From assembly GCF_017305435.1 (NCBI RefSeq), contig NZ_JAFKIP010000002.1:558001-622000 (forward strand): DNA of 64,000 nt. Direction: 5' to 3'. Both the position numbers and the translations under genes were made by a program. The stretch's first letter is position 1; every line of letters starts with the position of its first letter. Shown one piece after another: positions 21,098 through 58,397 of this stretch. A model generated the notes under the pieces. The model saw only the letters and a program-made list of their open reading frames with translations, was not told the DNA's origin and ran no database searches. This DNA is from Microbacterium sp. Its GTDB lineage: Bacteria > Actinomycetota > Actinomycetes > Actinomycetales > Microbacteriaceae.

Positions 21098-21124
21098 AAA
21101 CTCCCGGTAAAGCACCGAATCTTC

Positions 21125-21142
21125 ACTCCCTGATCAGGGAGT
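21125..21142. promoter_or_regulatory. 18-bp perfect palindrome behind the tRNA
   Basis: ACTCCCTGATCAGGGAGT reads identically on both strands. It lies 28 bases after the tRNA and 112 bases before the excisionase start. It is probably an operator for the excisionase-integrase genes or an arm-type recombinase site. It has no T run, so it is less likely to be a terminator. Confidence 0.55.
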
Positions 21143-21254
21143 TTGAATGTTTGGTAGTCGTTTACTGGACACTTCGCCGGGTCGCCGCAGTGCGCTTTCG
21201 GACCTTCTCGGAGTATCTGGAAGGTACGCGGCAAGGCCCGCGCACCTTCGCTGT

Positions 21255-21488
21255 ATGGACGGTGTTGGCACCTCAGAGTCGGGACACGGGAACTACGTGT
21301 CGCTGGCTGAGCTTGCCGCGCAGCTCAAAGTCTCCGTGCAGACGATCTACGACCTGCGGAGCAAGGGTCGTGGCCCCCGTGGGTTTCGTGTCGGCACGCA
21401 GCTGAGGTTTCGTGAGAGCGAGATCGACGCGTGGGTCCAGCGCATGGAGCTGGCCGACGAGCAGCGTCACGCCGGCGGTGCGTCATGA
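21255..21488 (+). CDS. Excisionase-like helix-turn-helix protein
   Basis: This is a 77-residue DNA-binding protein of the MerR-like/HTH_17 type: YVSLAELAAQLKVSVQTIYDLRSKGRGP then FRVGTQLRFRESEIDAWVQRM, both split here. This architecture is typical of recombination directionality factors encoded next to integrases. The ATG at 21255 gives the compact domain. It overlaps the integrase start by four bases (ATGA), so both are made together. Confidence 0.82.
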   Translation: MDGVGTSESGHGNYVSLAELAAQLKVSVQTIYDLRSKGRGPRGFRVGTQLRFRESEIDAWVQRMELADEQRHAGGAS

Positions 21489-22756
21489 ACGGCGGGCGGC
21501 CACGCACCCTGATCGGCTCGTACGGAACCATTAGCGTGACCAGGCGAGGCGCGTCCTACGTAGCGTTGGCGCGCATTCGCGACGCCGACGGGCGTCTGCG
21601 CAGAGTGACGGGTGCTGCACGTACGGAGTCGGCCGCTCGAGCCCGTTTGAAGGAGCGCCTGCTGGACAGGCCGGGCTTCGGTTCGGGAGGCCTGCTCGAT
21701 CTCAGCAGCTCCTTCCGTGACCTCGCTGATCTGTGGCTCGAGGATCTGGAGATGCGCGAGCTGTCGGACGGGACGAAGAAGAACTACCGCGATGATCTCC
21801 GCCTCCGCGTGCGGCCGCAGTTCGAGCACTTCTCGCTCGGTGAGATCACCACGGGCCGCGTGGAGTGGTTCCTCCGCTCTGAGAGGGCTGTGTCGTTCTC
21901 TCGTGCGCACCACTCGCGGACGATTCTCAATCAACTCTTCGGTTTTGCTCTCCGGCACGATGCGATCCCGCGGAATCCGGTGCAGGGAACAAGTCCATTG
22001 CGTCGGCCGAAGGGCGAGCGTCAGGCGTTGACCGTTGAGCAGATCAACGCGATCCGCGATGCCGCGGGTCGCTGGCGGACCGGACCCGACGTCAAAGGGC
22101 CCAAGCCCGACGGGCAGGTGCGCGACATCATCGAGGTGCTCCTCGGCACCGCGCTGCGCATCGGCGAGTGCCTCGCTCTCCGAGTGTGCGATGTCGAGGA
22201 CGGTCCCAGCGGGATGACGATCTCGGTGACGGGGACGGTCGTGTTGCGCACCGGCAGCGGCGCCGTGCGTCAAGACCACCCGAAGACCGAGCACTCTATC
22301 CGCCGAATCGCGGTTCCCGATTTCGCTGCGGACGTCGTTCGAGCACGGCTGGCCGGCATCCTGACTACCGACCCGGAACGGACCATCTTCGCCAATCGTG
22401 CGGGCGAGCCACTGAGCCCGTTCAATGTGCGACGTACCTTCCGAGCGTTCCTCGAGTTGGCAGATCTCGCGGGGGAGGGGATCACGTTGCGCTGGTATCG
22501 GCGGACCGGTGCAACGGTCATCGCGCGCGGGGCGAGCGCCGACGCTGCCGCCACCTTCCTCGGCCACGGATCGACAGCGATCACAGAAGGGCACTACATC
22601 GAGCCCGACCGCAGCGTGGATCGGGGGCCGGCAGGAATCCTCGAACGGACTCTACGCCGGGTGAACCCCGATACTTCGCTGCTCTCGACCGACGACGGAT
22701 TGGTGGATGATCTGGCGCTCGACTTCCTCGACGAGGAAGACATCGAAGCGGCCTAG
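21485..22756 (+). CDS. int: Tyrosine site-specific recombinase (integrase)
   Basis: This is a 423-residue phage-type integrase that would insert the element into tRNA-Ala. It has an N-terminal AP2-like arm-binding domain, a SAM-like core-binding domain (about residues 80-170), and a catalytic domain. Catalytic residues are visible in GTALRIGECLALR (Arg, near 225), RWYRRTGATVIARG (Arg, with Trp-Tyr in place of the usual His at the first position, near 336), LGHGS (His, near 360) and HYIEP (Tyr, near 371). It is coupled to the excisionase gene. Confidence 0.93.
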   Translation: MNGGRPRTLIGSYGTISVTRRGASYVALARIRDADGRLRRVTGAARTESAARARLKERLLDRPGFGSGGLLDLSSSFRDLADLWLEDLEMRELSDGTKKNYRDDLRLRVRPQFEHFSLGEITTGRVEWFLRSERAVSFSRAHHSRTILNQLFGFALRHDAIPRNPVQGTSPLRRPKGERQALTVEQINAIRDAAGRWRTGPDVKGPKPDGQVRDIIEVLLGTALRIGECLALRVCDVEDGPSGMTISVTGTVVLRTGSGAVRQDHPKTEHSIRRIAVPDFAADVVRARLAGILTTDPERTIFANRAGEPLSPFNVRRTFRAFLELADLAGEGITLRWYRRTGATVIARGASADAAATFLGHGSTAITEGHYIEPDRSVDRGPAGILERTLRRVNPDTSLLSTDDGLVDDLALDFLDEEDIEAA

Positions 22757-41998: not shown

Positions 41999-42651
41999 GA
42001 CGTAACCTCCTTCTGAACCTCAGGTGTGCCGATCGTCCCCGCGAACCACCGGCCGACTGTCGACGGATGAACTCCCGTGGCGCTCGCAATCTCCTTGTTC
42101 GACATCCCGCGCTGACGCATCAGCGCGGCAACGCTTCTACGGGCACCCTTCTCCGGAACCTCGACCAGCGAGCGAACCGGAACGACTTCTGTGGACAGGT
42201 CTCGTGACGTCTCTGCTGTGGAGGAAACGTGAAGCCGGAATCGCTGGGTGAGAACGACCGTCAGGTGAGTGATCGCGAGAAGCACCAGCGGCGGTACTGC
42301 GGCAACCGACGCTGCAAGCACGGGAAGAACATCGGCATCGGCCGCGACGACGGCATGGATCGAGTTCGCGGCGACCGATACGGCAGCGCCGATCATGAGC
42401 AGCATCCACGGATACCACGCACCCCGCTGTCCGGCGAGCGCGACGACGGCAACGGTTCCGACGACGATTATTCCGTCCACAATGAGCGGCCACGCCCACG
42501 CCTGCGTCGCCGCGATGCCGGACGCATGGGCGAGATCCGCGAGAGCGGTGAACGACAACCAGAACGCACCGACAGCGATGAACACGGTGCCGACTACCGC
42601 GGTCCATACGGCAATCCGTCCTGACCGCGGCTCCGTCGTAGCGGGGATCAC
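41995..42651 (-). CDS. DUF2637 membrane protein with C-terminal helix-turn-helix
   Basis: The 218-residue protein has four helices within residues 12-135, the DUF2637 (SpdB-like) layout. A C-terminal helix-turn-helix follows: MRQRGMSNKEIASATGVHPSTVGRWF near residues 185-205, split here. SpdB-like proteins are linked to spread of Streptomyces plasmids. It starts at GTG 42651 overlapping the primase stop (GTGA). Confidence 0.82.
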   Translation of the reverse strand: MIPATTEPRSGRIAVWTAVVGTVFIAVGAFWLSFTALADLAHASGIAATQAWAWPLIVDGIIVVGTVAVVALAGQRGAWYPWMLLMIGAAVSVAANSIHAVVAADADVLPVLAASVAAVPPLVLLAITHLTVVLTQRFRLHVSSTAETSRDLSTEVVPVRSLVEVPEKGARRSVAALMRQRGMSNKEIASATGVHPSTVGRWFAGTIGTPEVQKEVTS

Positions 42652-43538
42652 GAGATCACCTGCCCGCTGAGCGAGCGGGATGCTGAGCTGCCACCACTGA
42701 TGCGAAAGGGCGGCGTCTGCCCCACCACCGTTCGGTACGCAGACCGGATGGTCGTCAGGATCTCAGCCTGATGCAACCCCGCGTGCTCCGCAGCAGGCCC
42801 GAGTAGGTTGCGCGCGCTCTGATCAGTGACGCCGTTCTCGGCGAGCCGGCATGCGGCCCAGTACAGGGCGCGGTTCCGCTCGCCCTCAGCCCGTGCGGCC
42901 AGCCACGCCGCGAGACGCTCCGCGTCAACATCGCGGCGTGTCTCCACAGGCCTCGTCGCAGCAGGGGTCGGCCTCGGGTCGAGAAACTGTCGAAGCGCTG
43001 ATCCGTCGATTGACACGGCGTGCCCGCGTCCGGCGCCGATCAGCTCATACGCAGACCGGTTGCCTTCGAAAAGCACTTGCGACGGCGGCACGATGACGTA
43101 GCCGCCCTCACCCCGGAAGTCGATGCCGGCGCGGGCGGCCTGCCACGATGCCTGAACGCGATCAGGGTCTGCGGGGTAGTAGGCGTGCATCCCACCGGAT
43201 GCCGTCTTCACCAGCGCCTGCCAGCGATCCACGAGACCTTCCCGGCGAGCGAGCTCGAAGGCAGCGAATCCGCGCACCCGCCCGTGCACATCGATGTCTA
43301 CGACCTCGACGGCGGAAGCTCGCCCGGTCGGCATGCCGATGTTCGCTTCGGGCCATCGAGACCACCATCGGGCGATCTGGCGGTCGTCGGAGGTCGCGTC
43401 GCGGAACCCGTGCTCTGTGAGCGGCCGCTTCTCCGCTGGCTTGCAGGGGAAGATCGGGACTCCTGCCGCAGCGAATCGAGCGGCGCCTTCCCGCGGCGAG
43501 AGGCCGATCATTCCGGCGAACAGGGCGAGGGTGTCCAT
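42648..43538 (-). CDS. Bifunctional primase/polymerase (archaeo-eukaryotic primase type)
   Basis: The 296-residue protein has the Prim-Pol N-terminal domain. It opens with GVPIFPCKPAEKRPLTEHGF near residue 28, then WWSRWPEANIGMPTG, with catalytic acids in EVVDIDVHG near residue 78, and SGGMHAYY near 118. The C-terminus ends in a helical region. It would prime element DNA after entry. It starts at ATG 43538 in a TGATG overlap with the ArdC-like gene. Confidence 0.87.
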   Translation of the reverse strand: MDTLALFAGMIGLSPREGAARFAAAGVPIFPCKPAEKRPLTEHGFRDATSDDRQIARWWSRWPEANIGMPTGRASAVEVVDIDVHGRVRGFAAFELARREGLVDRWQALVKTASGGMHAYYPADPDRVQASWQAARAGIDFRGEGGYVIVPPSQVLFEGNRSAYELIGAGRGHAVSIDGSALRQFLDPRPTPAATRPVETRRDVDAERLAAWLAARAEGERNRALYWAACRLAENGVTDQSARNLLGPAAEHAGLHQAEILTTIRSAYRTVVGQTPPFRISGGSSASRSLSGQVIS

Positions 43539-44638
43539 CACAGATCCCGGGCCGAGAACGCTGATTCGGGGGACGAGTTCCGAACCCTCACGCGGCGGAC
43601 ATCATCGAACTGTTCCACCGGGCCAGCAACGAGAGTCTGAAGTGCACCCCGCTGCGCTTCCCTCGTCAGACCCGGAGGGTCGCCCGAGCCGACTTGCATC
43701 GTGCGCAGCCCCTTGAGGATCGCGACCGCTGCCGTGCGGACTCGCTCACCGGTCGCTTGCACGACTTCCACCGGCGTCTTTCCCTCGACGGATGTTGCCC
43801 ATGTCGCCACATACGGGATCGTGTAGCCCGATGTGTCGAGGCCGTGGGCCGCTCCGATCATCAGAGCAACGGACTCCGCTTCGACTTCCCCGATCCCGCG
43901 GTGGAGTACGGCATCGGCGTTGTCAGGGCCGTGCAGCATCACGTGCGCCAGCTCGTGCGCCAAGGTCTTCGCACGCGCCGCGGGGTCTATGTCACCCCGA
44001 ATGGCAACGCTTCGAGTGAGGTAGTCGGTCATGCCGTTGGCTCCGCCGAGAGCGCGATCGCTCCCAACAATGCGCAGCGTGTACCCGTGTTCGCGTACGA
44101 GGGATGCAAGACCATCCCAGAGACCCTGTGGCGCCTCGCCCGCGAGCAAATGCGGAGTGTGGGCATGGGGGATCGGGACACCGCTCGTCTGCGAGGCATC
44201 CCATACGTATGCGGGCCGCACGCCCACCATCCGCGTGCGCACTTCGTCGTTGCGTCTCGGGGTCTCGCGAGGCGCAAGACGACGCCATGACTCGGCGACG
44301 TGTGGGGTGGGGGAGGCGAATCGCGCGAGGATCGGCGCAAAGATCAGGTAGCCGGTCTGGCCGCGGGCGACCGACCTCCCAAGCGTGCGCCATTGCCGGA
44401 ACCCCGCGACGTACGTCGGCGTGGGCTCAGCGACCCTGCCCTGCTCGAACGCAGCAAGGTGCTGCACCCAGATGAGCATGGTGTTGTTGAACGAACGAGA
44501 GCGGAATCGCGCGGCGAACTCAAGAGCCTGCACCCAGTCGTTGCCCGTCACGAGCGTGCCCACGGCATCCGCCAGCTGAGCGTGCAGCCGTTCGAGCTTC
44601 GCCTCAGTGGAACCGACTGCGGGGGGTTGGTGTGTCAT
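43538..44638 (-). CDS. ArdC-like antirestriction protein with IrrE-type metallopeptidase domain
   Basis: The 366-residue protein has an N-terminal ssDNA-binding ArdC region (WVQALEFAARFRSRSFNNTMLIWVQ, split) and a zinc-protease motif LAHELAHVMLHG near residue 235. Such proteins are made early in recipient cells and protect entering DNA. The ATG at 44638 has a near-perfect AGAAGGAGGT site nine bases upstream. It is the first gene of the leftward transfer operon, facing the phased operator array. A second ImmA/IrrE-type protease lies at 45526. Confidence 0.85.
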   Translation of the reverse strand: MTHQPPAVGSTEAKLERLHAQLADAVGTLVTGNDWVQALEFAARFRSRSFNNTMLIWVQHLAAFEQGRVAEPTPTYVAGFRQWRTLGRSVARGQTGYLIFAPILARFASPTPHVAESWRRLAPRETPRRNDEVRTRMVGVRPAYVWDASQTSGVPIPHAHTPHLLAGEAPQGLWDGLASLVREHGYTLRIVGSDRALGGANGMTDYLTRSVAIRGDIDPAARAKTLAHELAHVMLHGPDNADAVLHRGIGEVEAESVALMIGAAHGLDTSGYTIPYVATWATSVEGKTPVEVVQATGERVRTAAVAILKGLRTMQVGSGDPPGLTREAQRGALQTLVAGPVEQFDDVRRVRVRNSSPESAFSARDL

Positions 44639-44868: not shown

Positions 44869-44970
44869 TTGAGCATGCTCAAATGGCTTTGGAGTTGTTT
44901 CTAGCACCGACATTGATCATGCGCAACGGTTGATTTGAGCATGCCCAACGGGTACGTTGAGCATGCTCAA
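44869..44970. promoter_or_regulatory. Four phased copies of a 14-bp palindromic operator
   Basis: TTGAGCATGCTCAA is present exactly at 44869-44882 and 44957-44970, with one variant at 44935-44948 (TTGAGCATGCCCAA) and one at 44913-44926 (TTGATCATGCGCAA). Start-to-start spacings are 44, 22 and 22 bases, i.e. whole helical turns, so bound proteins would lie on one face. The array is between the leftward transfer operon (start 44638) and the XRE regulator (start 45038). The 398-base region 44639-45037 holds no other feature that I can support. The adjacent XRE protein is the obvious candidate ligand. Confidence 0.8.
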
Positions 44971-45037
44971 CGCCCGTCGACGGGCGCTCACAAACGACAA
45001 GCCTTGCCTCACCCGAGGGGAAGGGTGGTCTACCGAA

Positions 45038-45460
45038 ATGACAGAAGACGAGAGCAAAGTGGCCGCGGAAGACCTCGCGAAACGCCTCAGGCTGCTTCTC
45101 GACGTCGCGATCACCGAGTCGGGTTCCGAACCGACCTACGCCCAGATCGCGGCGTTCCTCGAGAAGCGTGGGATCAACCTGTCGAGATCTCGATGGACAT
45201 ATATGGTCAACGGTCACCGCTACGTGCAAGACCCCGCGCTATTCGAAGGGCTCGCTGCGTTCTTCGACGTGGATGCCGCGTTCCTGCTCGGGGAGGACGG
45301 CGCAGCGACCCCGGACAAGGTCACCGCGCAGCTGGATCTTGTGCGAGCGATGCGAGCCGCGAAGGTGAAGTCCTATGCCGCGCGCACGCTGGGAGATATC
45401 TCCCCGAAGGCCCTTCAGGCGATCAGCAGATTCCTGGATGAGGAAATGACACACACCTGA
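45038..45460 (+). CDS. XRE-family helix-turn-helix regulator
   Basis: The 140-residue protein has the HTH in the middle: EPTYAQIAAFLEKRGINL, then SRSRWTYMVNG and the DPALFEGLAAFFDVDAAFLLG tail typical of XRE regulators. A C-terminal helical region (VRAMRAAKVKSYAARTL) may dimerise. The ATG at 45038 has a GAGGGGAAGGG upstream. It lies beside the phased operators and the ImmA/IrrE-type protease gene, the pattern of protease-controlled repressors such as ImmR-ImmA. Confidence 0.85.
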   Translation: MTEDESKVAAEDLAKRLRLLLDVAITESGSEPTYAQIAAFLEKRGINLSRSRWTYMVNGHRYVQDPALFEGLAAFFDVDAAFLLGEDGAATPDKVTAQLDLVRAMRAAKVKSYAARTLGDISPKALQAISRFLDEEMTHT

Positions 45461-45525
45461 GCAGTGCCCTTGCCGGTCCGTTGTGACCCCCCACCGGCAC
45501 ATGCTCCCCGGACGGGAGTGACATC

Positions 45526-45990
45526 GTGAATATCGAGCAGACCGTGCCGACGGCCGTCGCAGACCTTGCGCTGGGTAGCACCTTCACCTTTGACGATCTC
45601 GTTGGGGCAATCCAGGATCACCGGCAGCGCACACTCCGAATCGTGGAACTTGCGGATCTCGGCGACCACGATGGCATCTGCGCGGTGTGGCTCATCACCG
45701 AGAACGAAGACCTCGTCCTTCACGCGCACAGCGACTCCGTCCTCCATCGCCAGCAGTTCGTCCTGCACGAGTTCGCCCACATGATCCTCGGGCATGGAGA
45801 AGACGACGAATGTTCGACGGAAGACTTCCTGCTTCCCGACATCCCCGCCCGGACTCGGCGTCGACTACTCACTCGTCAAGATTTGGACTCTCACACCGAG
45901 ATCGCGGCGGAGGCCTTGGCTGATCATCTCGCTGCGGCGATCAGAGGATCGGTGTACGGCGAATCGCGCTACCTCGAGATCTTCGGGTGA
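45526..45990 (+). CDS. ImmA/IrrE-type metallopeptidase
   Basis: The 154-residue protein has the zinc site FVLHEFAHMILGH near residues 78-90. The N-terminal half (TLRIVELADLGDHDGICAVWLI, split) resembles the family. The start is GTG at 45526, with no better ATG. In known systems such proteases cut a partner repressor after a signal. Its stop overlaps the next start (TGATG), so it is made together with the membrane protein. Confidence 0.85.
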   Translation: MNIEQTVPTAVADLALGSTFTFDDLVGAIQDHRQRTLRIVELADLGDHDGICAVWLITENEDLVLHAHSDSVLHRQQFVLHEFAHMILGHGEDDECSTEDFLLPDIPARTRRRLLTRQDLDSHTEIAAEALADHLAAAIRGSVYGESRYLEIFG

Positions 45991-47009
45991 TGCAGACCTT
46001 CGTCGCGGTGCTGATGTGGCTGCTCGTGGCGAGCCTGCTCATCTTGCGCCGCGGACGAGCCGAGCGGAGCATCACCTACGCGGCGATCACGATCGCGGTC
46101 GCGATGACGATCAACGTCGATGCGGTCTACCGCTTCATCGATGCACTCCTCGGCGGCTCGAATGTCGCCACCCTCATCGGGGACTGCGCGCTCATGGTCG
46201 GGATCTTCTTCCTTGGCCGAGGGATCATGAAAGCGGGGGAGTATCAGCCCGGCCCAGTTCGCATTGCGCTGGGCCCCGTTGCCCTCCTGGTTGCGCTGAG
46301 CGGCGTCGGGATCGCCTTTCTGCTCATCGACCGTGGCGCCACGACGACCAACTTCATGATTGATCTCGGAGCGCAGCCTGCCGCAGCTGCGTACTCCATG
46401 ATCCAGTTCACCTACTACGGGATCGTCGTTGGCACCATGGCAGTCCTCGCGAGTCGCCAGTATCGGCTGAGCGTTGGTCTACAGCGTCTGCCGGCCGGCT
46501 GTCTCGTCGTCGGCGCGATCCTCGGAGTCGCTCTCTGTGTCGTCGTCCTCATCATGGACATCGCACACCTTTCCGGGCGTGCAGACGTGATGGCTGACGT
46601 GTCTATCGCGTATGGACCGCTTTACATGTTGACCTTCCTCTTCCTCTGCGTCGGACTCGCTGGGCAGCCGACAGCGCGCTACCTGAGCGCGCGCCGGAGG
46701 GCAGCGCGAACACGCACGCTCATCAAGGAACTGTCGCCCGCATGGCGAGCGGCGACGATCGTTCGCCCGGGATTGAGTCAGACGGATGCCGCGTCCGTGC
46801 AAACCGATCGCCTCGAGGCGCAGCTGCATAGACAGGTCGTAGAGATTCGCGACGCGATGATCGACCCGCGCGTGTCGTTCTCTCTCAGCGCAGATGACCG
46901 TCTCGTCCTTGAACGAGCGGAGCAGCATCTCCTCGGAACAGACGGAGCTCGACTTCACCCGTCGTCTGCACCGGCCACACGGCGTAACTCTCAACGAGGG
47001 GCGGCATGA
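45990..47009 (+). CDS. DUF6545 (MAB_1171c-like) membrane protein
   Basis: The 339-residue protein has seven predicted helices over about residues 3-225. A cytoplasmic tail follows in which LSPAWRAATIVRPGLSQ and RLEAQLHRQVVEIRDAMID match the DUF6545 pattern. Proteins of this type occur beside XRE and protease genes in actinobacteria; some databases call them putative transporters. A receptor-like role is plausible from the seven-helix-plus-tail layout. It overlaps the hydrolase gene by four bases. Confidence 0.8.
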   Translation: MQTFVAVLMWLLVASLLILRRGRAERSITYAAITIAVAMTINVDAVYRFIDALLGGSNVATLIGDCALMVGIFFLGRGIMKAGEYQPGPVRIALGPVALLVALSGVGIAFLLIDRGATTTNFMIDLGAQPAAAAYSMIQFTYYGIVVGTMAVLASRQYRLSVGLQRLPAGCLVVGAILGVALCVVVLIMDIAHLSGRADVMADVSIAYGPLYMLTFLFLCVGLAGQPTARYLSARRRAARTRTLIKELSPAWRAATIVRPGLSQTDAASVQTDRLEAQLHRQVVEIRDAMIDPRVSFSLSADDRLVLERAEQHLLGTDGARLHPSSAPATRRNSQRGAA

Positions 47010-48160
47010 GAAACCCGATCGCGCTGGCAGGCGTGATGGCGGCCGCAGCGTCCCTATCGTTGGGCCTCGGTTTGGTGATCACGCGGCGGCTGACCGCCCC
47101 TCCAGGCCCGCGCCGGTTCGAACTGGCCATCCGTGCTGTCGAACAAGATGGCGACCGGCGAGCAATCGTGCTCGATCGAACGCATCAAACTGAGTCCCCA
47201 GGTGAGTTTACTCTGCTGTTTCGAGGAGGCCAGTGGGTGCAGCTGTCTGCCGAGGTGCTTGATCGCGGGCCTCGGCGCCTCGCACGTGAAGTGACGGCAA
47301 CTGCACCGGGCTTCACGCCGTCAGCCGACGAGCCCGCATCCTGGAGCGGCATCTACTTCATGACGCCCGTCGATGCGGGCCTCAGCGCCTACGACATTGC
47401 CATCCCCACTCCGTCGGGGCCCGCGCCAGCGTGGCGTATCGGTCGCAGCGACTCGCAGTCAACGAGGTGGGCAATCCACATCCATGGGCTCGGCAGCCCG
47501 CGAGCCGGAACACTGCGCGGTGTGCAAGTCACCACCGAGCTGGGCTACACGTCCCTCGTCGTCAGCTACAGGAACGATAGCGAAGGCCCAAGGCGCGGAA
47601 CTGGTCGGTCAACCCTCGGCGCCACTGAAGTCGACGACGTCGACGCTGCGATCCAGTACGCCATCGATCAGGGCGCGCGTCGCGTCGTTCTCTTCGGCTG
47701 GTCAATGGGAGCACAGGTCGCACTCCAACTCGCTGCACGGCCGCGTTACGGGCGGCTGATAGCCGGGCTCGTGCTTGAGTCGCCCGTTCTCGACTGGGTC
47801 GCGACGATCAAGGCGAACTGCGCTCGCGCCGGGCTGCCCGCCGCGGCAGGGCTCCTCGCCATCCCGTGGCTCACATCGCCTTTGCTCGCGCGCGCAATCG
47901 GCCTGCCCGGCACCATCCCTCTCGGCGATCTCGACTGGATCGCACGCGCGCAGGAGCTGGCAGCCCCTACTCTGATCCTCCACGGAACGAACGACGGCTC
48001 GGCGCCGTCGGCCCTCTCTCGCGAGCTCGCAGTGCTGCGTCCAGATCTCGTTCAACTCGAAATCTTCGACTCAGATCACACGATGACGTGGAACTCCGAC
48101 CGAGAGCGTTGGCGGTCCACTGTTGCTGCCTGGCTTACTGCCAAGGTGACAGCTGACTAA
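47006..48160 (+). CDS. Membrane-anchored alpha/beta hydrolase
   Basis: The 384-residue protein has an N-terminal hydrophobic segment (residues about 4-26) and a hydrolase domain. The nucleophile elbow GWSMGAQ is near residue 231; Asp in LHGTNDGSAP near 328 and His in DSDHTMTW near 357 complete the triad. The domain is of the serine aminopeptidase/lysophospholipase type. It is coupled to the DUF6545 gene and could make or trim a lipid or peptide signal; the substrate is unknown. Confidence 0.83.
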   Translation: MRNPIALAGVMAAAASLSLGLGLVITRRLTAPPGPRRFELAIRAVEQDGDRRAIVLDRTHQTESPGEFTLLFRGGQWVQLSAEVLDRGPRRLAREVTATAPGFTPSADEPASWSGIYFMTPVDAGLSAYDIAIPTPSGPAPAWRIGRSDSQSTRWAIHIHGLGSPRAGTLRGVQVTTELGYTSLVVSYRNDSEGPRRGTGRSTLGATEVDDVDAAIQYAIDQGARRVVLFGWSMGAQVALQLAARPRYGRLIAGLVLESPVLDWVATIKANCARAGLPAAAGLLAIPWLTSPLLARAIGLPGTIPLGDLDWIARAQELAAPTLILHGTNDGSAPSALSRELAVLRPDLVQLEIFDSDHTMTWNSDRERWRSTVAAWLTAKVTAD

Positions 48161-48437: not shown

Positions 48438-49079
48438 CTATTCCGATTTCATCTCACTGAGGACCTCGAAGGGAGACTCGATGTCTCCGCGCCACGCTTC
48501 GATGCCTTCACGGACGGCGAGGGCTGCGACGACGAGCGCGGCGACAGAGTCGGCCCACCACCATCCGAGAAGGCTGTTCAGAATCAGACCGATGAATACG
48601 GCGCCGGAGAGGTAGACACAGAGCAGTAGCTGCTTCGCGTCGGCGAGGACGCTCTTTGATCCCAGTTCCCGGCCCGTGCGCGGTTCATACCAGGCCAGCG
48701 CCGGCATCACCAGCAAGCTCAACGCGGTGATCGCGAGGCCGCGCGGACTGTGCTCGGGTGCGTCTCTCGAGACAAGACTTAATATCGCGTCGACGGTGAC
48801 GTAGGCGGCGAGGGCGAAGAACGCCAGCCCGATCGCGCGAACCGTGGCCTTCTCCCACCGCTCAGGGTCCTTCCGGGTGAACTGCCACGCCACCGCGACC
48901 GCCGAGAGCACTTCGACGACAGAGTCCAAACCGAACCCAATGAGGGCTGCAGAAGAAGCGAGCACACCCGCCCAGATCGCGATGACCGCTTCCAGCACGT
49001 TGTAGGTGATCGTGAAGGCGACGATGAACCGCACGCGACGATGCAGCCGCTCCCGTCGCTCAGGCGTGAGCGTCGTCAC
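48438..49079 (-). CDS. Cation diffusion facilitator family transporter
   Basis: The 213-residue membrane protein has five or six helices. The CDF acidic residue positions are seen in ALIGFGLDSVVEVLSA near residue 48 and WWWADSVAALVVAA near residue 175. It lacks the long cytoplasmic domain of many CDF proteins. It starts at GTG 49079 overlapping the CmtR-like stop (GTGA). The context predicts export of Cd, Pb or Zn. Confidence 0.85.
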   Translation of the reverse strand: MTTLTPERRERLHRRVRFIVAFTITYNVLEAVIAIWAGVLASSAALIGFGLDSVVEVLSAVAVAWQFTRKDPERWEKATVRAIGLAFFALAAYVTVDAILSLVSRDAPEHSPRGLAITALSLLVMPALAWYEPRTGRELGSKSVLADAKQLLLCVYLSGAVFIGLILNSLLGWWWADSVAALVVAALAVREGIEAWRGDIESPFEVLSEMKSE

Positions 49080-49429
49080 GGTGCGACCTCGCAGCAGCCG
49101 GGAACCGTGCAGGATGCGTCGACGCACGGCGCGTTCTCATCGACCGCCAAGGTGACATCCACGAGAGCGGTGAGCGCGACGGCCAGATGGCCATCAGCAA
49201 TCTCATAGCGTGTCTGACGCCCCTCGGGCTCGGCGATCACGATGCCGCAGTCGCGAAGGCAGGTGAGGTGGTTGGAGACATTTGACCGGGACAGCTCGAG
49301 TTCGCGAGCGAGTACAGCCGGATAGCTCGGGCCGCCGAGCAGGGTCATCAGTATCCGCGATCGTGTCGGGTCGGCCATAGCCCGTCCCAGTCGATTCATG
49401 ACATCCAGGCGATTCGCAATAGTCAGCAC
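49076..49429 (-). CDS. cmtR: CmtR-like ArsR/SmtB cadmium/lead sensor
   Basis: The 117-residue winged-helix repressor closely follows Mycobacterium CmtR: LGRAMADPTRSRILMTLLGG, SRSNVSNHLTCLRDCGIV with the two metal-binding Cys, and a C-terminal NAPCVDASC region carrying the third. The start is GTG at 49429. It lies inside an inverted repeat, so the transcript is probably leaderless or nearly so. It is co-transcribed with the cation transporter. Metal would release it from DNA. Confidence 0.88.
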   Translation of the reverse strand: MLTIANRLDVMNRLGRAMADPTRSRILMTLLGGPSYPAVLARELELSRSNVSNHLTCLRDCGIVIAEPEGRQTRYEIADGHLAVALTALVDVTLAVDENAPCVDASCTVPGCCEVAP

Positions 49430-49455
49430 TCAATGACTATACAGTGCTTGCTGTA
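49419..49455. promoter_or_regulatory. Probable CmtR operator
   Basis: ATAGTCA (49419-49425) and TGACTAT (49434-49440) form a perfect inverted repeat with eight bases between. A second pair, TACAG (49440-49444) and CTGTA (49451-49455), is adjacent. The first pair spans the GTG start codon of the sensor gene. Confidence 0.55.
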
Positions 49456-49655
49456 CCGACCGCACGTCTTCGCCGGGGACCAACGAGCCCACGCATCGCG
49501 CACACCTCAGCCGCGACCGTGCGACGGCGACACGGCCCCGGGGCCATCGACTATTGCGGGTTACCGTACCCCGGTTGAGTCTGCAAGGCCCTTACTGGGC
49601 GCGTGGCAAGCGGCTTACGTTACCGGCGTTCAAACCCCTTCGAAAGGAGACGGCC

Positions 49656-50060
49656 ATGACGGTCACCGAGGACATGCTGCGCACCTACCCGAAGAGTCTC
49701 GGGAATGTGGATGAGAGGGTGCTGGCGCGTTGTATCGACGCGTGTGTGGAGTGCGCGCAGGCCTGCACTGCGTGTGCGGACGCTTGCTTGAGCGAGGAGA
49801 TGGTCGCGGAGCTGACGAAGTGCATTCGCACCAATCTGGATTGCGCCGACCTGTGCGCGGTCACGGCGCGCGTGCTGTCACGGCACACCGGGTACGACGC
49901 GAACATCACCCGCGCGGCCGTGGAGGCGTGCCGATCGGCGTGTAAAGCGTGCGCGGACGAGTGCGAGCGCCATGCAGACATGCACGAGCACTGCCGTGTG
50001 TGCGCGGAATCATGCCGACGCTGCGAGCAGGCCTGTGAGGAACTGCTGCGCAGCCTGTAG
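49656..50060 (+). CDS. Cysteine-rich four-helix-bundle copper storage protein (Csp type)
   Basis: The 134-residue cytosolic-type protein has no signal peptide. I count 18 cysteines arranged along the helices (CIDACVECAQACTACADAC, then CRVCAESCRRCEQAC). In Csp proteins these line the bundle core and bind many Cu(I) ions. The ATG at 49656 follows GAAAGGAGACGGCC. It is the first gene of the copper block. No obvious operator was found in front of it. Confidence 0.9.
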   Translation: MTVTEDMLRTYPKSLGNVDERVLARCIDACVECAQACTACADACLSEEMVAELTKCIRTNLDCADLCAVTARVLSRHTGYDANITRAAVEACRSACKACADECERHADMHEHCRVCAESCRRCEQACEELLRSL

Positions 50061-51153: not shown

Positions 51154-51480
51154 ATGACCACGAACGAGCGCACCGACCTGGGCCTGACCGACTCCGCCGC
51201 CGGATGCAGCTGCTGCGCCACGGCATCCGTCCCCGACACGCAGCCCGCCGCATCCACGATCACCGCTGAGGTGCTGGTTGAGGGGATGACCTGCTCGCAC
51301 TGCGTGATGAGCGTCACCGAGGAGATCTCCGCGATCGACGGTGTCGATAACGTCTCGGTCGACCTGAAGGCCGGCGGAACCTCACGGGTCACGATCCACA
51401 GCGCCGAGCCGATCGATGCCGCACGCGTGCGGGCCGCGGTAGAGGAGGCGGGGTACGCCCTCGCCGGCACACCCGCATGA
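51154..51480 (+). CDS. copZ: CopZ-like heavy-metal-associated chaperone
   Basis: The 108-residue protein has one HMA domain: [17 protein letters not shown] near residue 42 with the CxxC copper ligands. The N-terminus carries another cysteine cluster (GCSCCATA). It overlaps copA by four bases (ATGA) and would deliver copper to it. It is longer than typical CopZ because of the extra N-terminal segment of about 35 residues. Confidence 0.92.
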
Positions 51481-53750
51481 GCACCGTCGATGTGGACCTC
51501 GATATCTCGGGGATGACCTGCGCATCCTGCGCGACCCGGATCGAGCGCAAGCTCAACAAGATCCCGGGGGTGGAGGCGACGGTCAATTACGCGACCGAGA
51601 AGGCGCGCGTGCACGCCGACGGCGTGGAGACGGCGCAGCTGATCGCGGCGGTCGAATCCGCCGGCTACTCCGCGGCGCTTCCCGCGCCGATCATCGATGA
51701 GTCCACATCGGCCGCAACACCTGCCGACGACGTCGAGTTGGTTACCCTGCGCCGCCGGCTGCTGATCAGCACGGCCCTGGCCGTGCCGGTCGCGCTGATG
51801 TCGATGATCCCGTTGCTGCAGTTCACGAACTGGCAGTGGCTCGCGCTGACCCTGACCGCGCCGGTCGCGGTGTGGGGCGCCTGGCCGTTCCACCGTGCCG
51901 CGTTCGTGAATGCCCGCCACGGCGCCGCGACCATGGACACGCTGATCAGCCTCGGGGTGATCGCCGCATTCGGGTGGTCGCTGTATGCGCTGTTCTTCGG
52001 GATGGCGGGGATGCCGGGCATGCACATGACCTTCACCCTCTTCGGCAGCCCGGAAGCGGGAAGCGGGGAGATCTACCTGGAAGTCGCCGCCCTCGTCACG
52101 GTGTTCATCCTCGCCGGCCGGTACGCCGAAGCCCGGGCGAAGAAGTCTTCTTCCGAGGCGTTGCGCGCCCTGCTCGAACTCGGCGCCAAGGACGCCACGC
52201 GCCTCGTCGGCGGGGTGGAGCAGCGTGTTCCGGTCGCACAGCTTGCCGTCGGGGACCGGGTGCTGGTGCGCCCCGGCGAGAAGATCCCCTCGGACGGGCT
52301 CGTCGTCGACGGCGCCTCGGCGATCGACGCCAGCATGCTGACCGGGGAATCCGTGCCGGTCGAGGTCACCGTCGGATCCCGCGTCGTGGGCGCCACCGTG
52401 AACGTTGGCGGACGCCTGATCGTCGAGATCACGAGGGTCGGGGCGGACACGGAGCTGGCGCGGATGCAGCGGCTGATGGATGACGCTCAGACCGGCAAGG
52501 CGCGCGTGCAGCGTCTCGCCGACCGGGTCTCGGCCGTGTTCGTTCCGATCGTGATCCTCCTGGCGATCGTCGCTTTCGTCGGGTGGATGCTGGTCGGTGG
52601 GTCCGTCGAGGTCGCGTTCACTGCTGCGGTGGCGACGCTGATCATCGCCTGCCCGTGCGCGCTGGGCTTGGCCACTCCGACCGCGCTGCTGGTCGGCACC
52701 GGACGCGGGTCACAGCTGGGCATCCTCATTCGTGGGCCGCAGGTGCTTGAGCAGACCCGTCAGGTCGACACGATCGTGCTGGACAAGACCGGAACCATCA
52801 CCCAGGGCGCGATGACCGTCACCACCGTCTCGGCGGCGCCCGGCGTTACCGATGACGAGTTGCTGCGGATCGCCGCCGGCGCGGAGTGGGGATCCGAACA
52901 CCCCGTCGCGCGGGCCATCGCGAGCGCTCATGGTGGCGCGGCACCGGTGGCGGAGTCGTTCGCGTCGCACGCCGGGTTCGGCGTCCAGGCCGTTCTGGAA
53001 GGCTCGCTCGTCGTGGCTGGACGCCCGGAGTGGGTGGAGGACCAGTGGTCCGTTCATCTGCCGATCCGTTTTCGCGGTGAGGCTGAGGTGCTGGAGGCTG
53101 CTGGGGGCACGGTGATCGCGGTCGCCCGCGACGGGGACTTCCTCGGCATCGTCGCGGTCTCCGACACCCTCAAGCCCACCAGCGCGGACGCGATCGCCCG
53201 ATTCCGCGCCCTGGGCCTGCGTCCCGTGCTGCTCACGGGCGACAACGCCGGCGCCGCCGAGCACATCGCGGGGCTGGTCGGCATCGATGAGATTCGGGCT
53301 GGGGTCACCCCCGCAGGAAAGCTCGACGCCATCCGGCAGCTGCAATCCGCGGGGCGTGTGGTGGCGATGGTCGGTGACGGTGTGAACGATGCCGCCGCCC
53401 TCGCCGCGGCCGACCTCGGCATCGCGATGGGGGGCGGGACGGACGCCGCCATCGCCGCCAGCGACGTAACCATCGCCTCCGGCGATCTCCTGGTTGTCGC
53501 GGATGCGATCCGGCTGTCGCGCCGGACGCTGGGCACCATCAAGGGCAACCTGTTCTGGGCGTTCGCGTACAACATCGCCGCGATCCCGATCGCGATGCTC
53601 GGCCTGCTCAACCCCCTGGTTGCCGCCGCAGCGATGGCCCTGTCGTCGGTGTTTGTGGTGACCAACAGCCTCCGCCTGCGGCGGTTCCGCCCAGCGTCGG
53701 CGCCGACGGTGCCGACCGCACCCGTGGCGCGAGAACCGCAGCACGTTTGA
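51477..53750 (+). CDS. copA: Copper-exporting P-type ATPase (CopA)
   Basis: The 757-residue pump has an N-terminal HMA domain with CASC at residues 15-18, the actuator TGES in MLTGESVP near residue 285, the intramembrane CPC in [13 protein letters not shown] near residue 392, and phosphorylation motif DKTGT near residue 436. The hinge GDGVND is near residue 637. All canonical residues of P1B-1 copper pumps are present. It is the third gene of the CsoR-controlled operon. A strong hairpin follows the stop codon. Confidence 0.95.
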
Positions 53751-54978: not shown

Positions 54979-55860
54979 ATGAAGACACATACACGCACTC
55001 TCGCCGCTTTTGGCCTCGCCACCACGGTTGTCCTGACCGCCGCCGCATGCGCGGCTGTACCCGAGAATGAGACCTCGCTCGATCTCATACCGCACGTCCA
55101 CGACGTCGCTTTCGACCCGGACGGGGCGGTGCTGGTCGGCGCACACACCGGTGTCTACCGGGTCGACCCGACGACCGACGACACCTCCCTGGTCGGGAAG
55201 ACCACCTTCGATGCGATGGGACTGACCGTCCACGCGGACACCATCCTCGCGTCCGGCCACCCTGACCCGGCCAACCAGGACCACACCTTCACTGCCCCCA
55301 ACGTGGGCCTGGTCCGCTACAGCGACGCCGGCTGGGAACAGGTGTCGCTGGCAGGCGTCACCGACTTCCACCTTCTCGCCGCCACCCCCGCCGCCCCCGA
55401 CTTCCTCCTCGGGCTTCCGTCCGACCGGGCGGTCCTCGCCGCGAGCGGTGATGCCGGGCAGACCTGGGAGGACCTTGGCCCGCTGACGGCACGGGACATC
55501 AGCATCGACCCGATGAAAGCCGATGTGGTCACTGCCACCACTCCGGAGGGTCTGATGGTCAGCCGCGACGGCGGCATCACCTTCACCGCGGTCGCCAACG
55601 CCCCGGCGCTTCTGGTGATCACGGCCGACCCGACAGCGGAGGAGGGCATCATCGGGGTCGATGCGGACGGCATGATCTGGACCGGAAGCACGACCGAGGG
55701 GGCCGTCTGGAAGACCGCCGGGCACGCCACCGGCGCCGCCTCGGCAATCGCGGCCAGCTTCGACGGAGCTGTCGCCATCGCTGACGAGGGCGGAGTGCGC
55801 ATAACCACCGACGCCGGAAAAACCTGGCGGACTGTCATCAGGACGGACGCTTCACAATGA
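54979..55860 (+). CDS. Lipoprotein with BNR/WD-like beta-propeller repeats
   Basis: The 293-residue protein has a signal peptide and lipobox-like [10 protein letters not shown]. Repeated beta-propeller blades follow, with BNR-like [23 protein letters not shown] and [11 protein letters not shown]. Similar proteins are labelled F510_1955-type glycosyl-hydrolase-like and occur with copper genes, but I see no catalytic residues. It overlaps the in-frame ATG upstream of the next gene. Confidence 0.8.
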
Positions 55861-55895
55861 ACCCGACGTCCGCCGATCACCGAGAAGAGAAGATC

Positions 55896-58397
55896 ATGAG
55901 CAACACGACGCGAACCGTGGTGTTGGAAGTCGAGGGGTTGTCCTGGGCGTCCTCAAAGGCCACGGTCGAGGCCACCCTGCTGCGGCAGGCGGGTGTCACT
56001 GATGTCGAGGCGAACCCGGTCTCCCAGACCGCGAACGTGACCTACAACCCGGAGCTGACCTCACAGGATCAGCTGCGGCAGTGGATCATCGAGTGCGGCT
56101 ACCACTGCGCCGGGCAGTCCGTCCCCGAGCACATCTGCGATCCCGCCGACGACCCCACCCGGCCGGCGCACACCGACCACCGCCCGCCCCCGACCGAACC
56201 ACACGTGCCGCCGCCCGGGGATGCACGGCCCCTGGGCCCGACGACCCCGGCTCACGATCACGCCGCCATGACCAGCCCCGCACCTGTGGGCGGCGAGACC
56301 TCCGCGGATCAGGTCCCACGCCAAGCCCTGGATCACGGAGGCCACGAGATGGCAGACCGCAGCATGCAGGATGTGATGGGGCACGGCGGAAGCCACGCGG
56401 GAATGTCCATGGCCTCGATGATCCGCGATATGCGCAACCGGTTCATCGTGGCCGCCGTGCTGTCCGTCCCGATCATCTTGTGGTCCCCGATCGGCCGGGA
56501 AGTGCTGGGGTTCACCGTGCCCGCACCGTTCGGGCTGCGCGATGACGTGTTCTCGCTGATCCTCTCGCTGCCGGTGATCTTCTACTCCGCCTGGATCTTC
56601 TTCGATGGGGCCTTCCGTGCGCTCCGAGCCCGCACCCTGGACATGATGGTGCTGGTCGCCGTCGGTGTCGGCACCGGCTGGCTGTACAGCGTGGCGGTCA
56701 CCCTCACCGGCGGCGGTGAAGTGTTCTACGAAGCCGCCACCGTGCTTGCCGCGTTCGTGCTGCTCGGCCATTGGGTGGAGATGCGCGCCCGCGGCGGGGC
56801 GAACGACGCGATCCGCACCCTGCTCGAGCTCGCCCCTCCCCGCGCAGTCGTGCTCCGCGACGGCGAAGAGGTCGAGGTGCCCACCGCCGACGTCGTCCCC
56901 GGCGATCTCATGCTGGTCCGACCCGGCGCGAAGATCCCCACCGACGGCACCGTCGAAGAAGGCGACTCGGAGATCGACGAATCCATGGTGACCGGCGAGA
57001 GCCTCCCGGTCCTCAAAACGCCCGGATCCGAGGTGATCGGCGCCACCGTCAACACCACCGGGACCCTCCGGGTACGGGCCACCAAGGTCGGCGCCGACAC
57101 CGCCCTCGCGCAGATCGTCGCGCTCGTCCAGGAGGCGCAGAACTCCAAAGCCCCCGGGCAACGCCTCGCCGACCGGGCGGCGTTCTGGCTGGTCCTGGTC
57201 GCCCTGATCGGCGGCACGGTCACCTTCCTCGCCTGGCTGCTGATCGGCGCCCCAGTGCCTACAGCGATCCTGTTCGCCATCACCGTCGTGGTGATCACCT
57301 GCCCCGACGCGCTCGGCCTGGCCACACCGACTGCGATCATGGTCGGCACCGGACTCGGCGCCAAACGCGGCGTGCTGTTCAAGAACGCCAGCGCCCTGGA
57401 ATCCGCTGCCCATATCGATACGGTCGTCCTCGACAAGACCGGCACTCTGACCAAGGGCGAACCCGAAGTCACGGACTACCTGCCGATCGGCATGAACGAC
57501 ATCGAACTGCTCTCCCTCGCGGCCGCAGCGGAACGCGAATCTGAGCATCCGCTCGCCAGGGCGGTCGTCGCCTACGCCGACGCCCGCAACATCCCCCGAC
57601 GCACCGCCAGCGCATTCCGGAATGTGACCGGGCTCGGCGCTGTCGCCACCGTCGACGGCCACCGCGTGGTGATGGGCAACACCCGTCTGATGGCCGATGA
57701 GGGCATCGACATCAGCCCCATCGAGGCAGCCCTCCACGGACTGGCCTCCACCGGACGCACCGCCATCGCATTCGCGGTGGACGGCGAGGCAGCTGGGGTG
57801 ATCGCGCTGGCGGACGCGCCGCGAGAGACCGCCGCGGCAGCGGTCACGGCCCTCCACGAGGCTGGCATCGAGGTCGTTATGCTCACCGGCGACAACGAGC
57901 CCACGGCAAAGCGGATCGCCTCCCTGTTGAGCATCGACACCGTGATCGCCGAAGTCCTCCCCGAGGACAAGTCCGCACGGATCGCCGAGCTGCAACGGGC
58001 GGGCAAGAAGGTTGCCATGGTCGGCGACGGCGTGAACGACGCCCCCGCCCTCGCTCAAGCAGACCTGGGCGTCGCCATCGGCGCGGGAACCGATGTGGCC
58101 ATCGAGACCGCCGATGTCGTGCTGATGCGCTCCGACCCTCTCGACGTCGCGATCGCGCTGCGGATCGGGAAAGGCACCGTCCGAAAGATGCGACAGAACC
58201 TCGGCTGGGCCATCGGCTACAACGCCGTCGCCCTCCCGATCGCCGCCGGCGTCTTCGTCTCCTCGCTGGGGATCATGCTCAGCCCGGAGATCGCCGCCAT
58301 CTCGATGTCCGGCTCCAGCGTCATCGTCGCCGTGAACGCGCTCCTGCTCAAGAGGCTGCGCCTCCCCTCACCTGCCGCTCCCGCTGCAGCATCCTGA
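55896..58397 (+). CDS. P1B-type metal ATPase with CPD motif and degenerate HMA domain
   Basis: The 833-residue pump has an N-terminal HMA-like domain in which the usual CxxC is replaced by WASS (residues 17-20). A His/Met-rich linker (about residues 95-185, with HDHAAM, HGGHEM and [10 protein letters not shown]) follows. The intramembrane motif is CPD in [12 protein letters not shown] near residue 469, not CPC or CPH. The phosphorylation motif DKTGT is near residue 513 and GDGVND near 710. It is therefore a probable second copper pump of altered specificity. An in-frame ATG at 55857 overlapping the previous stop is an alternative start; the one given has GAGAAGAGAAG upstream. Confidence 0.88.

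What the first reader, a model, noticed from the sequence alone, without database searches (positions are those of the whole stretch)
44869..48160. Regulator, protease, seven-helix protein and hydrolase as one switch module
An XRE regulator, an ImmA/IrrE-type protease, a DUF6545 membrane protein and a membrane-anchored alpha/beta hydrolase form one tightly coupled operon (TGATG and ATGA overlaps between the last three). Protease-plus-XRE pairs control integrative elements elsewhere (ImmR-ImmA of ICEBs1). Here a seven-helix protein with a cytoplasmic tail could be a receptor and the hydrolase could make or destroy a signal. The operators in front also face the transfer operon. I know no described system with exactly this four-gene composition; that is recall, not a search.
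Basis: partly seen in the sequence, partly recalled or inferred. Interest (0 to 1): 0.75.

Follow-up and report, generated by a model that had tools for sequence, protein, structure and literature searches.

The report
Receptor-protease-enzyme switch of mobile DNA
A jumping DNA element of actinobacteria carries a four-gene control switch (gene regulator, protein-cutting enzyme, receptor-like membrane protein and a hydrolase that may act on a signal), conserved in many relatives, and the same regulator-protease-membrane set turns up elsewhere with other enzymes swapped in, which suggests an undescribed way for these bacteria to sense a small molecule.

Summary
XRE 45038-45460, ImmA-like zinc protease 45526-45990, a seven-helix protein 45987-47009 and a membrane-anchored alpha/beta hydrolase 47006-48160 lie behind four TTGAGCATGCTCAA-type sites (44869, 44913, 44935, 44957), facing an ICE's replication/transfer operon. 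All four genes occur together in 72 of 78 related loci (three of the six exceptions run off contigs). Four or five operators stand in 66 of 75 loci. Catalytic residues are kept. Beyond this ICE family, EspR-like XRE + ImmA + seven-helix protein is a recurrent trio: ImmA within 3 kb in 91 of 93 loci with a full-length seven-helix protein, XRE too in 80. The gene coupled behind it is often an enzyme, of differing class: hydrolase, P450, amidase, amidohydrolase, FAD oxidoreductase-like, aldo/keto reductase, MpaB oxygenase, PAP2-like. Enzyme class follows the seven-helix ML tree with the fewest changes possible. Several membrane-half residues are class-specific, several tail residues shared. Most likely: a small-molecule receptor controls the protease, which destroys the repressor; the enzyme acts on the ligand. 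Sequence and family facts are shown; cleavage, sensing and ligand are inferred. New variant of the ImmR-ImmA type of switch.

The parts
44869..44882 (.). Operator O1, perfect palindrome TTGAGCATGCTCAA
   Evidence: perfect in 59 of the 64 four-site relatives
44913..44926 (.). Operator O2 (TTGATCATGCGCAA); overlaps the proposed -35 of the leftward promoter; G at position 11 in 64 of 64 four-site relatives
44935..44948 (.). Operator O3, between proposed -35 and -10 of the rightward promoter
44957..44970 (.). Operator O4, at the end of the proposed rightward -10 and over the likely start site
44898..44926 (-). Proposed leftward promoter of the replication/transfer operon (-35 TTGCGC 44926-44921, -10 TAGAAA 44903-44898, spacer 17)
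   Evidence: my reading of the sequence and of the alignment; not tested
44930..44958 (+). Proposed rightward promoter of the switch operon (-35 TTGATT 44930-44935, -10 TACGTT 44953-44958, spacer 17)
   Evidence: my reading of the sequence and of the alignment; not tested
45038..45460 (+). EspR-like XRE regulator, 140 aa, presumed repressor
45526..45990 (+). ImmA/IrrE-like zinc protease, HEFAH plus downstream E; motif intact in relatives
45987..47009 (+). Seven-helix membrane protein, N-out/C-in by loop charges, long cytoplasmic helix and DUF6545-like tail
47006..48160 (+). Alpha/beta hydrolase with N-terminal membrane helix; presumed triad S233, D330, H358
43538..44638 (-). First gene of the divergent operon: ArdC-like protein, presumed target of the switch
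42648..43541 (-). Primase/polymerase, second gene of the divergent operon

Best explanation
This is the master switch of an actinobacterial integrative and conjugative element. The EspR-like XRE protein sits on four operators, three of them two helical turns apart, and shuts both the divergent replication/transfer operon and its own operon. The seven-helix protein is a receptor for a small molecule: its membrane half binds the ligand and its cytoplasmic tail holds and controls the ImmA-like zinc protease. When the ligand state changes, the protease destroys XRE and the element is switched on. The hydrolase changes the ligand (most likely destroys it, so that cells already carrying the element lower the signal around them; making it is the alternative). 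The same trio is used elsewhere in Actinomycetes with other enzymes. Shown: genes, operators, conservation, coupling, topology by charge, enzyme swapping that follows the receptor clade. Inferred: DNA binding and repression, cleavage, control of the protease by the receptor, and the enzyme's action on the ligand.
For: Four genes together in 72 of 78 loci, ImmA and seven-helix genes overlapping by 4 nt in 70 of 72. Divergent ArdC gene detected in 60 of 78 and primase/polymerase in 70 of 78 (some loci end early). Four or five operators in 66 of 75 loci, O2 with its special G in 64 of 64 four-site loci; the alignment puts O2 on the leftward -35 and O3/O4 on the rightward promoter (promoter reading mine). 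HExxH intact in 77 of 77; catalytic S and D in 73 of 73 and H in 72 of 72 proteins with a residue there. Topology by loop charges and model. Wider family: ImmA within 3 kb in 91 of 93 full-length seven-helix loci, XRE too in 80; ImmA hits 95 within 2 kb (533 kb) and 0 beyond (459 kb), XRE hits 78 and 4. The enzyme coupled downstream changes class and follows the seven-helix tree: 9 changes for 10 classes in the quick ML tree, 7 for 8 classes inside one genus; 10 with FastTree, shuffles 36.5. XRE follows less well: 13 against 8 on the same loci. M124, D191 and H194 mark the hydrolase class (14, 12 and 12 of 14), while R282 and D289 are kept in 49 of 51 and G223 in 50 of 51 rows of six classes. 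No peptide gene that I would accept as conserved in the three gaps examined, which points to a non-peptide signal.
Against: No experiment. Foldseek gives no significant match for the seven-helix model (best a GPCR, E 0.015, TM 0.37). Co-segregation of enzyme and receptor would also arise if whole operons are inherited together; the ImmA tree follows almost as well (11 against 10 on the same loci). On the FastTree tree PAP2-like needs 4 changes, P450 2 and FAD 2. 50 of 107 tree rows carry no enzyme label and were not counted. In L114, L115 and L118 the regulator, not an enzyme, follows the receptor, and many loci have no coupled frame. 11 of 93 loci have ImmA but no XRE nearby and 2 (L128, L150) have neither. 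The ImmA, XRE and membrane profiles were retrained on hits from these same loci before counting. A homologue of the hydrolase is a common chromosomal gene, 178 of 297 genomes of the order, so its substrate need not be a special signal. I287 is C in the amidohydrolase class and E286 is lost in most of the FAD class. The tail core is filled in only 61 of 107 rows on average.
Confidence: 0.55

Rival explanations
1. The enzyme is only an output of the switch (for example host modification, detoxification or exclusion of a second element), and the membrane protein senses envelope state rather than a ligand made or destroyed by the enzyme.
For: The enzyme gene overlaps the switch genes; BlaZ-like outputs exist in receptor/protease/repressor systems (recalled). 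Hydrolase homologues are ordinary chromosomal genes.
Against: Enzyme class and receptor clade match with the minimum number of changes, also inside one genus; residues specific to the hydrolase class lie in the membrane half.
Confidence: 0.22
2. The seven-helix protein is a transporter (as NCBI names its family) that moves the enzyme's substrate or product; regulation through ImmA is indirect.
For: NCBIfam name 'MAB_1171c family putative transporter' (below cut-off); a knockout of MAB_1171c lowered biofilm by about half and was discussed as transport (PMC8707978, passages).
Against: No significant fold match, and 46 of the 50 matches listed are GPCRs, none a transporter; top-residue frequency across classes is highest in the cytoplasmic tail core, 0.59 against 0.29-0.41 elsewhere; ImmA is the near-constant neighbour.
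Confidence: 0.1
3. DNA-damage or stress switch of the IrrE/DdrO kind in which ImmA responds to a cytoplasmic cue and the membrane protein only tethers it.
For: ImmA/IrrE-type proteases respond to DNA damage in ICEBs1 and Deinococcus (PMC6540685 and PMC2701414, passages; DdrO recalled).
Against: A tether would not need a seven-helix body with class-specific residues and a swappable enzyme.
Confidence: 0.1
4. Toxin-antitoxin or addiction module.
For: XRE plus COG2856 protease pairs were listed as candidate toxin-antitoxin systems (PMC2701414, passages).
Against: That paper set aside three XRE pairs with a membrane protein, because no type II system with a membrane component was known to it; here the operators face the transfer operon.
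Confidence: 0.03

Closest known systems
ImmR-ImmA switch of ICEBs1 (with RapI-PhrI)
   Same: ICE; XRE-type master repressor with a zinc protease of the ImmA family
   Different: EspR-like regulator with a four-operator array; membrane seven-helix protein and enzyme in the operon; no Rap/Phr-like cassette seen. ICEBs1 facts from passages of PMC6540685
BlaR1-BlaI-BlaZ / MecR1-MecI (recalled)
   Same: Logic: membrane receptor, zinc protease, repressor, and an enzyme acting on the ligand
   Different: There receptor and protease are one protein and the repressor is of another family; here they are separate genes in the 77 ICE-type loci with both
MAB_1171c family NF042915 / DUF6545
   Same: Same body and tail by profile; this family gave most of the wider loci used here
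   Different: The window protein scores below both curated cut-offs; no function established that I found
EspR of mycobacteria
   Same: XRE aligns over 112 residues
   Different: Low similarity; EspR is titled nucleoid-associated protein / ESX-1 secretion-associated regulator in the PDB entries, not an ICE repressor with an ImmA partner
Streptomyces conservons (recalled)
   Same: Conserved signalling set with a variable cytochrome P450 at the end
   Different: Unrelated proteins (sensor kinase, Roadblock, GTPase)
AICEs
   Same: Actinobacterial, tRNA-linked integrase, Prim-Pol
   Different: AICEs use a single FtsK-like translocator (PMC3218068, passages); this element has VirB4/VirD4-like genes

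Membership tests
ImmR-ImmA type ICE switch | XRE regulator next to an M78-type zinc protease in an ICE | tested here: met
   the Pfam M78 score itself is below the cut-off (18.3 against 22), HExxH kept in 77 of 77
ImmR-ImmA type ICE switch | Operators of the regulator in front of the transfer operon | tested here: inconclusive
   a conserved palindrome array is there; that XRE binds it was not tested
ImmR-ImmA type ICE switch | Protease cleaves the regulator | not testable with these tools
   needs purified proteins or cells
ImmR-ImmA type ICE switch | Rap-Phr peptide cassette | tested here: not met
   no convincing conserved small frame in the ArdC-XRE, XRE-ImmA or post-hydrolase gaps; no Rap-like family among the Pfam hits, which did not cover every gene of the element
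MAB_1171c family (NF042915) | Score over the curated cut-off of 100 bits | tested here: not met
   91.2 bits, E 6.7e-26
DUF6545 (PF20182) | Score over the gathering cut-off 24.4 | tested here: not met
   22.1 bits; tail residues shared with the wider family
EspR | Sequence match over HTH and C-terminal part | tested here: inconclusive
   E 2.8e-4 by phmmer
BlaR1/MecR1 receptors | Sensor and zinc protease in one polypeptide | tested here: not met
   separate frames in 77 of 77 ICE-type loci that hold both
Transporter | Fold match to a transporter | tested here: not met
   665 matches with E up to 10, 0 at 0.001 or better; only the first 50 are listed, 46 of them GPCRs
AICE | Single FtsK/SpoIIIE-type translocator instead of a T4SS | tested here: not met
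   TraG/VirD4-like gene over Pfam cut-offs and a VirB4/TraC-like gene below cut-offs

The most novel reading that the evidence does not exclude
A separate class of bacterial transmembrane signalling: seven-helix receptors with private small-molecule ligands act through a dedicated ImmA protease on an EspR-like repressor, each receptor clade being paired with its own ligand-making or ligand-destroying enzyme. Mobile elements use it to sense recipients or kin; Streptomyces-like genomes use several such channels side by side.
Probability: 0.35. Interest if true: 0.9.

Novelty: new variant of a known kind. Interest (0 to 1): 0.72.

Why it matters
It would explain how a large ICE family of Micrococcales and relatives decides to transfer, give a function to a membrane family named only 'putative transporter', and offer enzyme identities (P450, amidase, amidohydrolase, hydrolase) as clues to the ligands.

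Tried and rejected
Peptide signal: small frames (18-110 aa) in three gaps of the representatives were clustered. ArdC-XRE gap, 33 regions: clusters of 32, 5, 4, 4 and 3 loci; the big one looks like translation of the operators themselves (my reading of the sequences). XRE-ImmA gap: no frame. Behind the hydrolase, 36 regions: clusters of 15, 12, 10, 8 and 7 loci; the first looks like arginine-rich chance frames, the second is an HTH protein, the third its opposite strand. Rejected for now, not excluded.

Transporter and GPCR kinship: Foldseek best E 0.015, TM 0.37; read as a generic seven-helix resemblance, not as kinship.

Function of the hydrolase from the neighbours of its chromosomal homologues: ten loci fetched, the homologue called in 9 of 10; nine neighbour genes scanned, all with Pfam names: RNase D-like exonuclease, SufE, rhodanese, AFG1 ATPase, ammonium transporter, SelR, DUF3000, DNA ligase, RibD; no clue.

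Hydrolase side of the membrane: mean flank charges 2.50 (N side) and 2.60 (C side) over 72 proteins; undecided.

Element ends: no second copy of the tRNA-Ala end, and no exact repeat of 16 bases or more with 20900-21450, within the window; right end not found.

Operators in other modules: 18 distant loci, hand-picked. CATG-centred near-palindromes in 8 of 18 (L114, L115, L118, L133-L137; two sites in L136, 46 bases apart), none in the other 10. Single copies are no more than shuffles give, so only the shared centre is noted.

Defence: weak capH, capP and RmrA matches only (E 0.024, 0.011, 0.041). Phages: the membrane protein has no match. XRE-operator DNA in plasmids: no match, while the membrane protein has 15 plasmid records.

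Literature: searches listed no paper whose title or abstract start describes the trio or the four-gene set; one paper holds MAB_1171c. Only open-licence papers are held, so this is weak evidence of absence. Of papers I saw passages only: PMC8707978, PMC6540685, PMC2701414, PMC3218068.
Full report
WHAT IS THERE. The window lies on contig C6 of G000, a Microbacterium-like genome: the three nearest named relatives of the membrane protein are Microbacterium strains, 91-92% identical. Four frames follow each other on the + strand: XRE 45038-45460, ImmA-like protease 45526-45990, seven-helix protein 45987-47009, hydrolase 47006-48160. In front lie four copies of one 14-base palindrome at 44869, 44913, 44935 and 44957, spaced 44, 22 and 22 bases. 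On the other side, on the - strand, begin an ArdC-like gene, a primase/polymerase and a DUF2637/HTH gene, followed by transfer genes: ParB-like, M23 peptidase, two DUF6112, TrbL/SCO6881-like, SCO6880 family, VirB4/TraC-like (below cut-offs), TraG/VirD4-like, SSB. An integrase at 21431-22756 stands beside tRNA-Ala 21022-21097. So this is an integrative and conjugative element with T4SS-type genes, not an AICE in the sense of PMC3218068 (passages seen). I did not identify a relaxase.

IS IT MORE THAN CHANCE. One scan of 84,980 species genomes with the seven-helix protein gave 78 loci. All four genes are found in 72 of 78. Of the other six, L087, L099 and L110 run off their contig, L060 and L088 lack a detectable XRE, L106 lacks the hydrolase. 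ImmA and the seven-helix gene overlap by 4 bases in 70 of the 72. Among the 72, L080 has an interrupted ImmA frame, and L043 and L061 have a hydrolase cut by the contig end. The set is not one recent clone: of 77 membrane proteins, window included, 40 remain when thinned to under 90% identity. Hosts include Microbacterium, Cryobacterium, Arthrobacter, Leucobacter, Agromyces, Tessaracoccus and Brevibacterium. The divergent primase/polymerase is seen in 70 of 78 and ArdC in 60 of 78 loci, though many loci are truncated.

OPERATORS. In the 75 loci with XRE, 64 show four sites (up to 3 mismatches), 2 five, 5 three, 2 two, 1 one and 1 none; the last, L040, has almost no upstream DNA. In the 64 four-site loci the spacings are 43 to 47, then 22 (61 loci) or 23 (3), then 22 (36) or 23 (28); O1 is the perfect palindrome in 59 and O2 has G at position 11 in 64 of 64. 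There are 274 sites with at most two mismatches in 31 kb upstream against 8 in 1,394 kb elsewhere. In the alignment of 36 rows, of which 26 were displayed, a conserved TTG box lies before O3 and a conserved TA-containing box between O3 and O4: I read this as the rightward promoter (TTGATT 44930, TACGTT 44953, spacer 17). On the - strand, TTGCGC inside O2 and TAGAAA at 44903-44898, spacer 17, would be the leftward promoter; the constant G of O2 is part of that -35. A repressor on these sites should shut both; that is inference.

THE PROTEINS. XRE matches solved EspR chains over residues 12-123 (E 2.8e-4) and is the most conserved of the four: mean identity to the window 82% against 69, 59 and 61% for ImmA, membrane protein and hydrolase. 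ImmA keeps the HExxH residues in 77 of 77 and the downstream glutamates in 76 of 77; the exception is L080. The seven-helix model has mean pLDDT 84.6, with one very long helix 199-259 that I read as running from the membrane into the cytoplasm, and a small helical tail. Loop charges of the representatives fit N-out/C-in: mean K+R 4.4, 3.0, 2.4, 7.7 in the presumed inner loops, 0.5, 1.4, 0.3 in the outer ones. Foldseek gives no significant neighbour. The hydrolase model (mean pLDDT 83.5) is an alpha/beta hydrolase behind a membrane helix 4-30 and a beta-rich stretch, nearest to Pyrococcus esterase Pf2001 (E 5e-12). S233 and D330 are kept in 73 of 73 and H358 in 72 of 72 proteins with a residue at that place.

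BEYOND THE ICE FAMILY. I fetched 103 further stretches chosen by the membrane protein or its family (20, 5 plasmids, 60), picked by hand from longer listings. Of these, 93 hold a full-length (300 aa or more) seven-helix frame, 8 only a short one, 2 none; ImmA lies within 3 kb in 91 of the 93 and XRE as well in 80; 2 full-length loci (L128, L150) and all 8 short ones have neither (the counter printed adds loci with neither partner twice). ImmA hits are 95 within 2 kb of the membrane gene (533 kb) and 0 further away (459 kb); XRE hits 78 and 4. The profiles used had been retrained on hits from the same loci. The order of genes shuffles: ImmA-7TM-XRE-hydrolase in L114 and L115, ImmA-7TM-hydrolase-XRE on the Arthrobacter-type plasmids L133-L135, XRE-ImmA-7TM-hydrolase in L113 and L137.

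THE SWAPPED ENZYME. Looking for a frame that starts from 70 bases before to 120 behind the end of the membrane gene gave 82 frames; those of 140 aa or more were clustered. Clusters and the members I tested by Pfam: 15 PAP2-like (three of five tested gave PAP2 at E 1e-5 to 5e-5, all below the cut-off; L116 and L126 gave none); 6 amidohydrolase (L138, L176); 6 amidase (L139, L198); 6 cytochrome P450 (L189); 5 FAD oxidoreductase-like (L141 over a cut-off, L146 and L148 below); 4 of the window's hydrolase family (L113, L133, L135, L137; L134, L114 and L115 have it too); 2 MpaB oxygenase (L136, L172); 2 aldo/keto reductase (L179); one pair (L187, L190; L187 tested) without a name. Other frames were XRE, ImmA or a second seven-helix gene, or singletons, of which L157, L158 and L194 gave no Pfam hit. 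In L143 and L145 an alpha/beta hydrolase lies convergently beside the membrane gene. 57 of 107 tree rows were labelled; rows from loci with two seven-helix genes, singletons and loci without a coupled frame were left unlabelled. On the FastTree tree the label needs 10 changes, least possible 9, shuffles 36.5; taken singly, PAP2-like needs 4, P450 2, FAD 2, the other listed classes 1. On a quick IQ-TREE tree it needs 9; inside the largest genus, 31 rows and 8 classes, 7, the least possible, where shuffles on the FastTree tree give 21.1, at least 18. On the same loci the ImmA tree needs 11 (membrane protein 10) and the XRE tree 13 (membrane protein 8). Identity within against between classes is 0.36/0.18 in the membrane half, 0.32/0.23 in the long helix and 0.54/0.37 in the tail core. 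In the hydrolase class M124 is kept in 14 of 14, D191 and H194 in 12 of 14, D45 in 11 of 14; of these only D45 is among the three commonest residues of another class (2 of 15 PAP2-like). R282 and D289 are kept in 49 of 51 and G223 in 50 of 51 rows of the six classes tabulated; I287 is not (C in all 6 amidohydrolase rows), nor E286 (1 of 4 in the FAD class). This is what one expects of a receptor with a class-specific pocket and a common output, though shared inheritance of whole operons would give part of it.

THE HYDROLASE HAS A HOUSEKEEPING COUSIN. The membrane protein matches in 25 of 297 and XRE in 33 of 297. So the element carries a private relative of a common membrane hydrolase. Its substrate may be an ordinary envelope or lipid-type ester of these bacteria; that is a guess.

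HOW IT MOST LIKELY WORKS. OFF: XRE on four operators represses transfer and its own operon. ON: the receptor, in the right ligand state, lets ImmA remove XRE. The hydrolase, made whenever the switch operon leaks or fires, changes the ligand. If it destroys a ligand made by other cells, the circuit reports the presence of cells without the element, comparable in logic to PhrI in ICEBs1 (PMC6540685, passages); if it makes the ligand, the circuit is quorum-like. I put 0.85 on repression of both promoters, 0.7 on cleavage of XRE by ImmA, 0.6 on control of ImmA by the seven-helix protein, 0.5 on the enzyme acting on the ligand; these are judgements.

WHAT IS NEW. Protease-plus-XRE control of ICEs is known. 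A membrane receptor-like partner and a swappable enzyme in the same operon are not described in the papers that my searches listed (open-licence full texts only). The one experimental hint on the wider membrane family that I saw is a biofilm loss of about half in a MAB_1171c knockout (PMC8707978, passages).

Noticed in passing
window 21022-22756: tRNA-Ala next to a tyrosine integrase probably marks one end of the element; no second copy of the tRNA end lies in the window, so the other end was not found.
   Followed up: partly
window 48438-50060 and beyond: Behind the switch: cation efflux, ArsR-type regulator and DUF326 genes, then long frames at 51477-53750 and 55857-58397 that look like metal P-type ATPases (recalled motif, not scanned); probable metal cargo.
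   Followed up: no
window 43538-44638: The ArdC-like first gene of the divergent operon also carries an M78/IrrE-like stretch (20.8 bits, cut-off 22), so two ImmA-like metal sites face each other across the operators.
   Followed up: no
L136, L141, L147, L179, L215: Pairs of seven-helix genes in one locus, with one or two ImmA genes, as if receptors worked as pairs.
   Followed up: no
L123, L125, L129, L131: Short seven-helix relatives (about 240-295 aa) without XRE or ImmA nearby, beside two genes of about 555 and 640 aa.
   Followed up: no
L114, L115, L118, L133-L137: Near-palindromes centred on CATG upstream of related modules, resembling the core of the ICE operator.
   Followed up: partly
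L059, L060, L063, L067, L070, L079 behind the hydrolase: A small excisionase-like HTH frame follows the hydrolase in a cluster of 12 relatives, six of them printed (the name is recalled).
   Followed up: no
G000 contig C4 185514-185527: The only other operator-like site (one mismatch) in the genome.
   Followed up: no
L134 (plasmid pCZY of Paenarthrobacter ureafaciens) and hits H1-H15: The four genes in another order sit on pCZY (sample from a nicotine environment); 15 plasmid records match the membrane protein, 10 of them typed conjugative, several from tobacco roots.
   Followed up: partly
L080 about 9540-10004: ImmA frame interrupted in one relative while the other three genes are found.
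   Followed up: no
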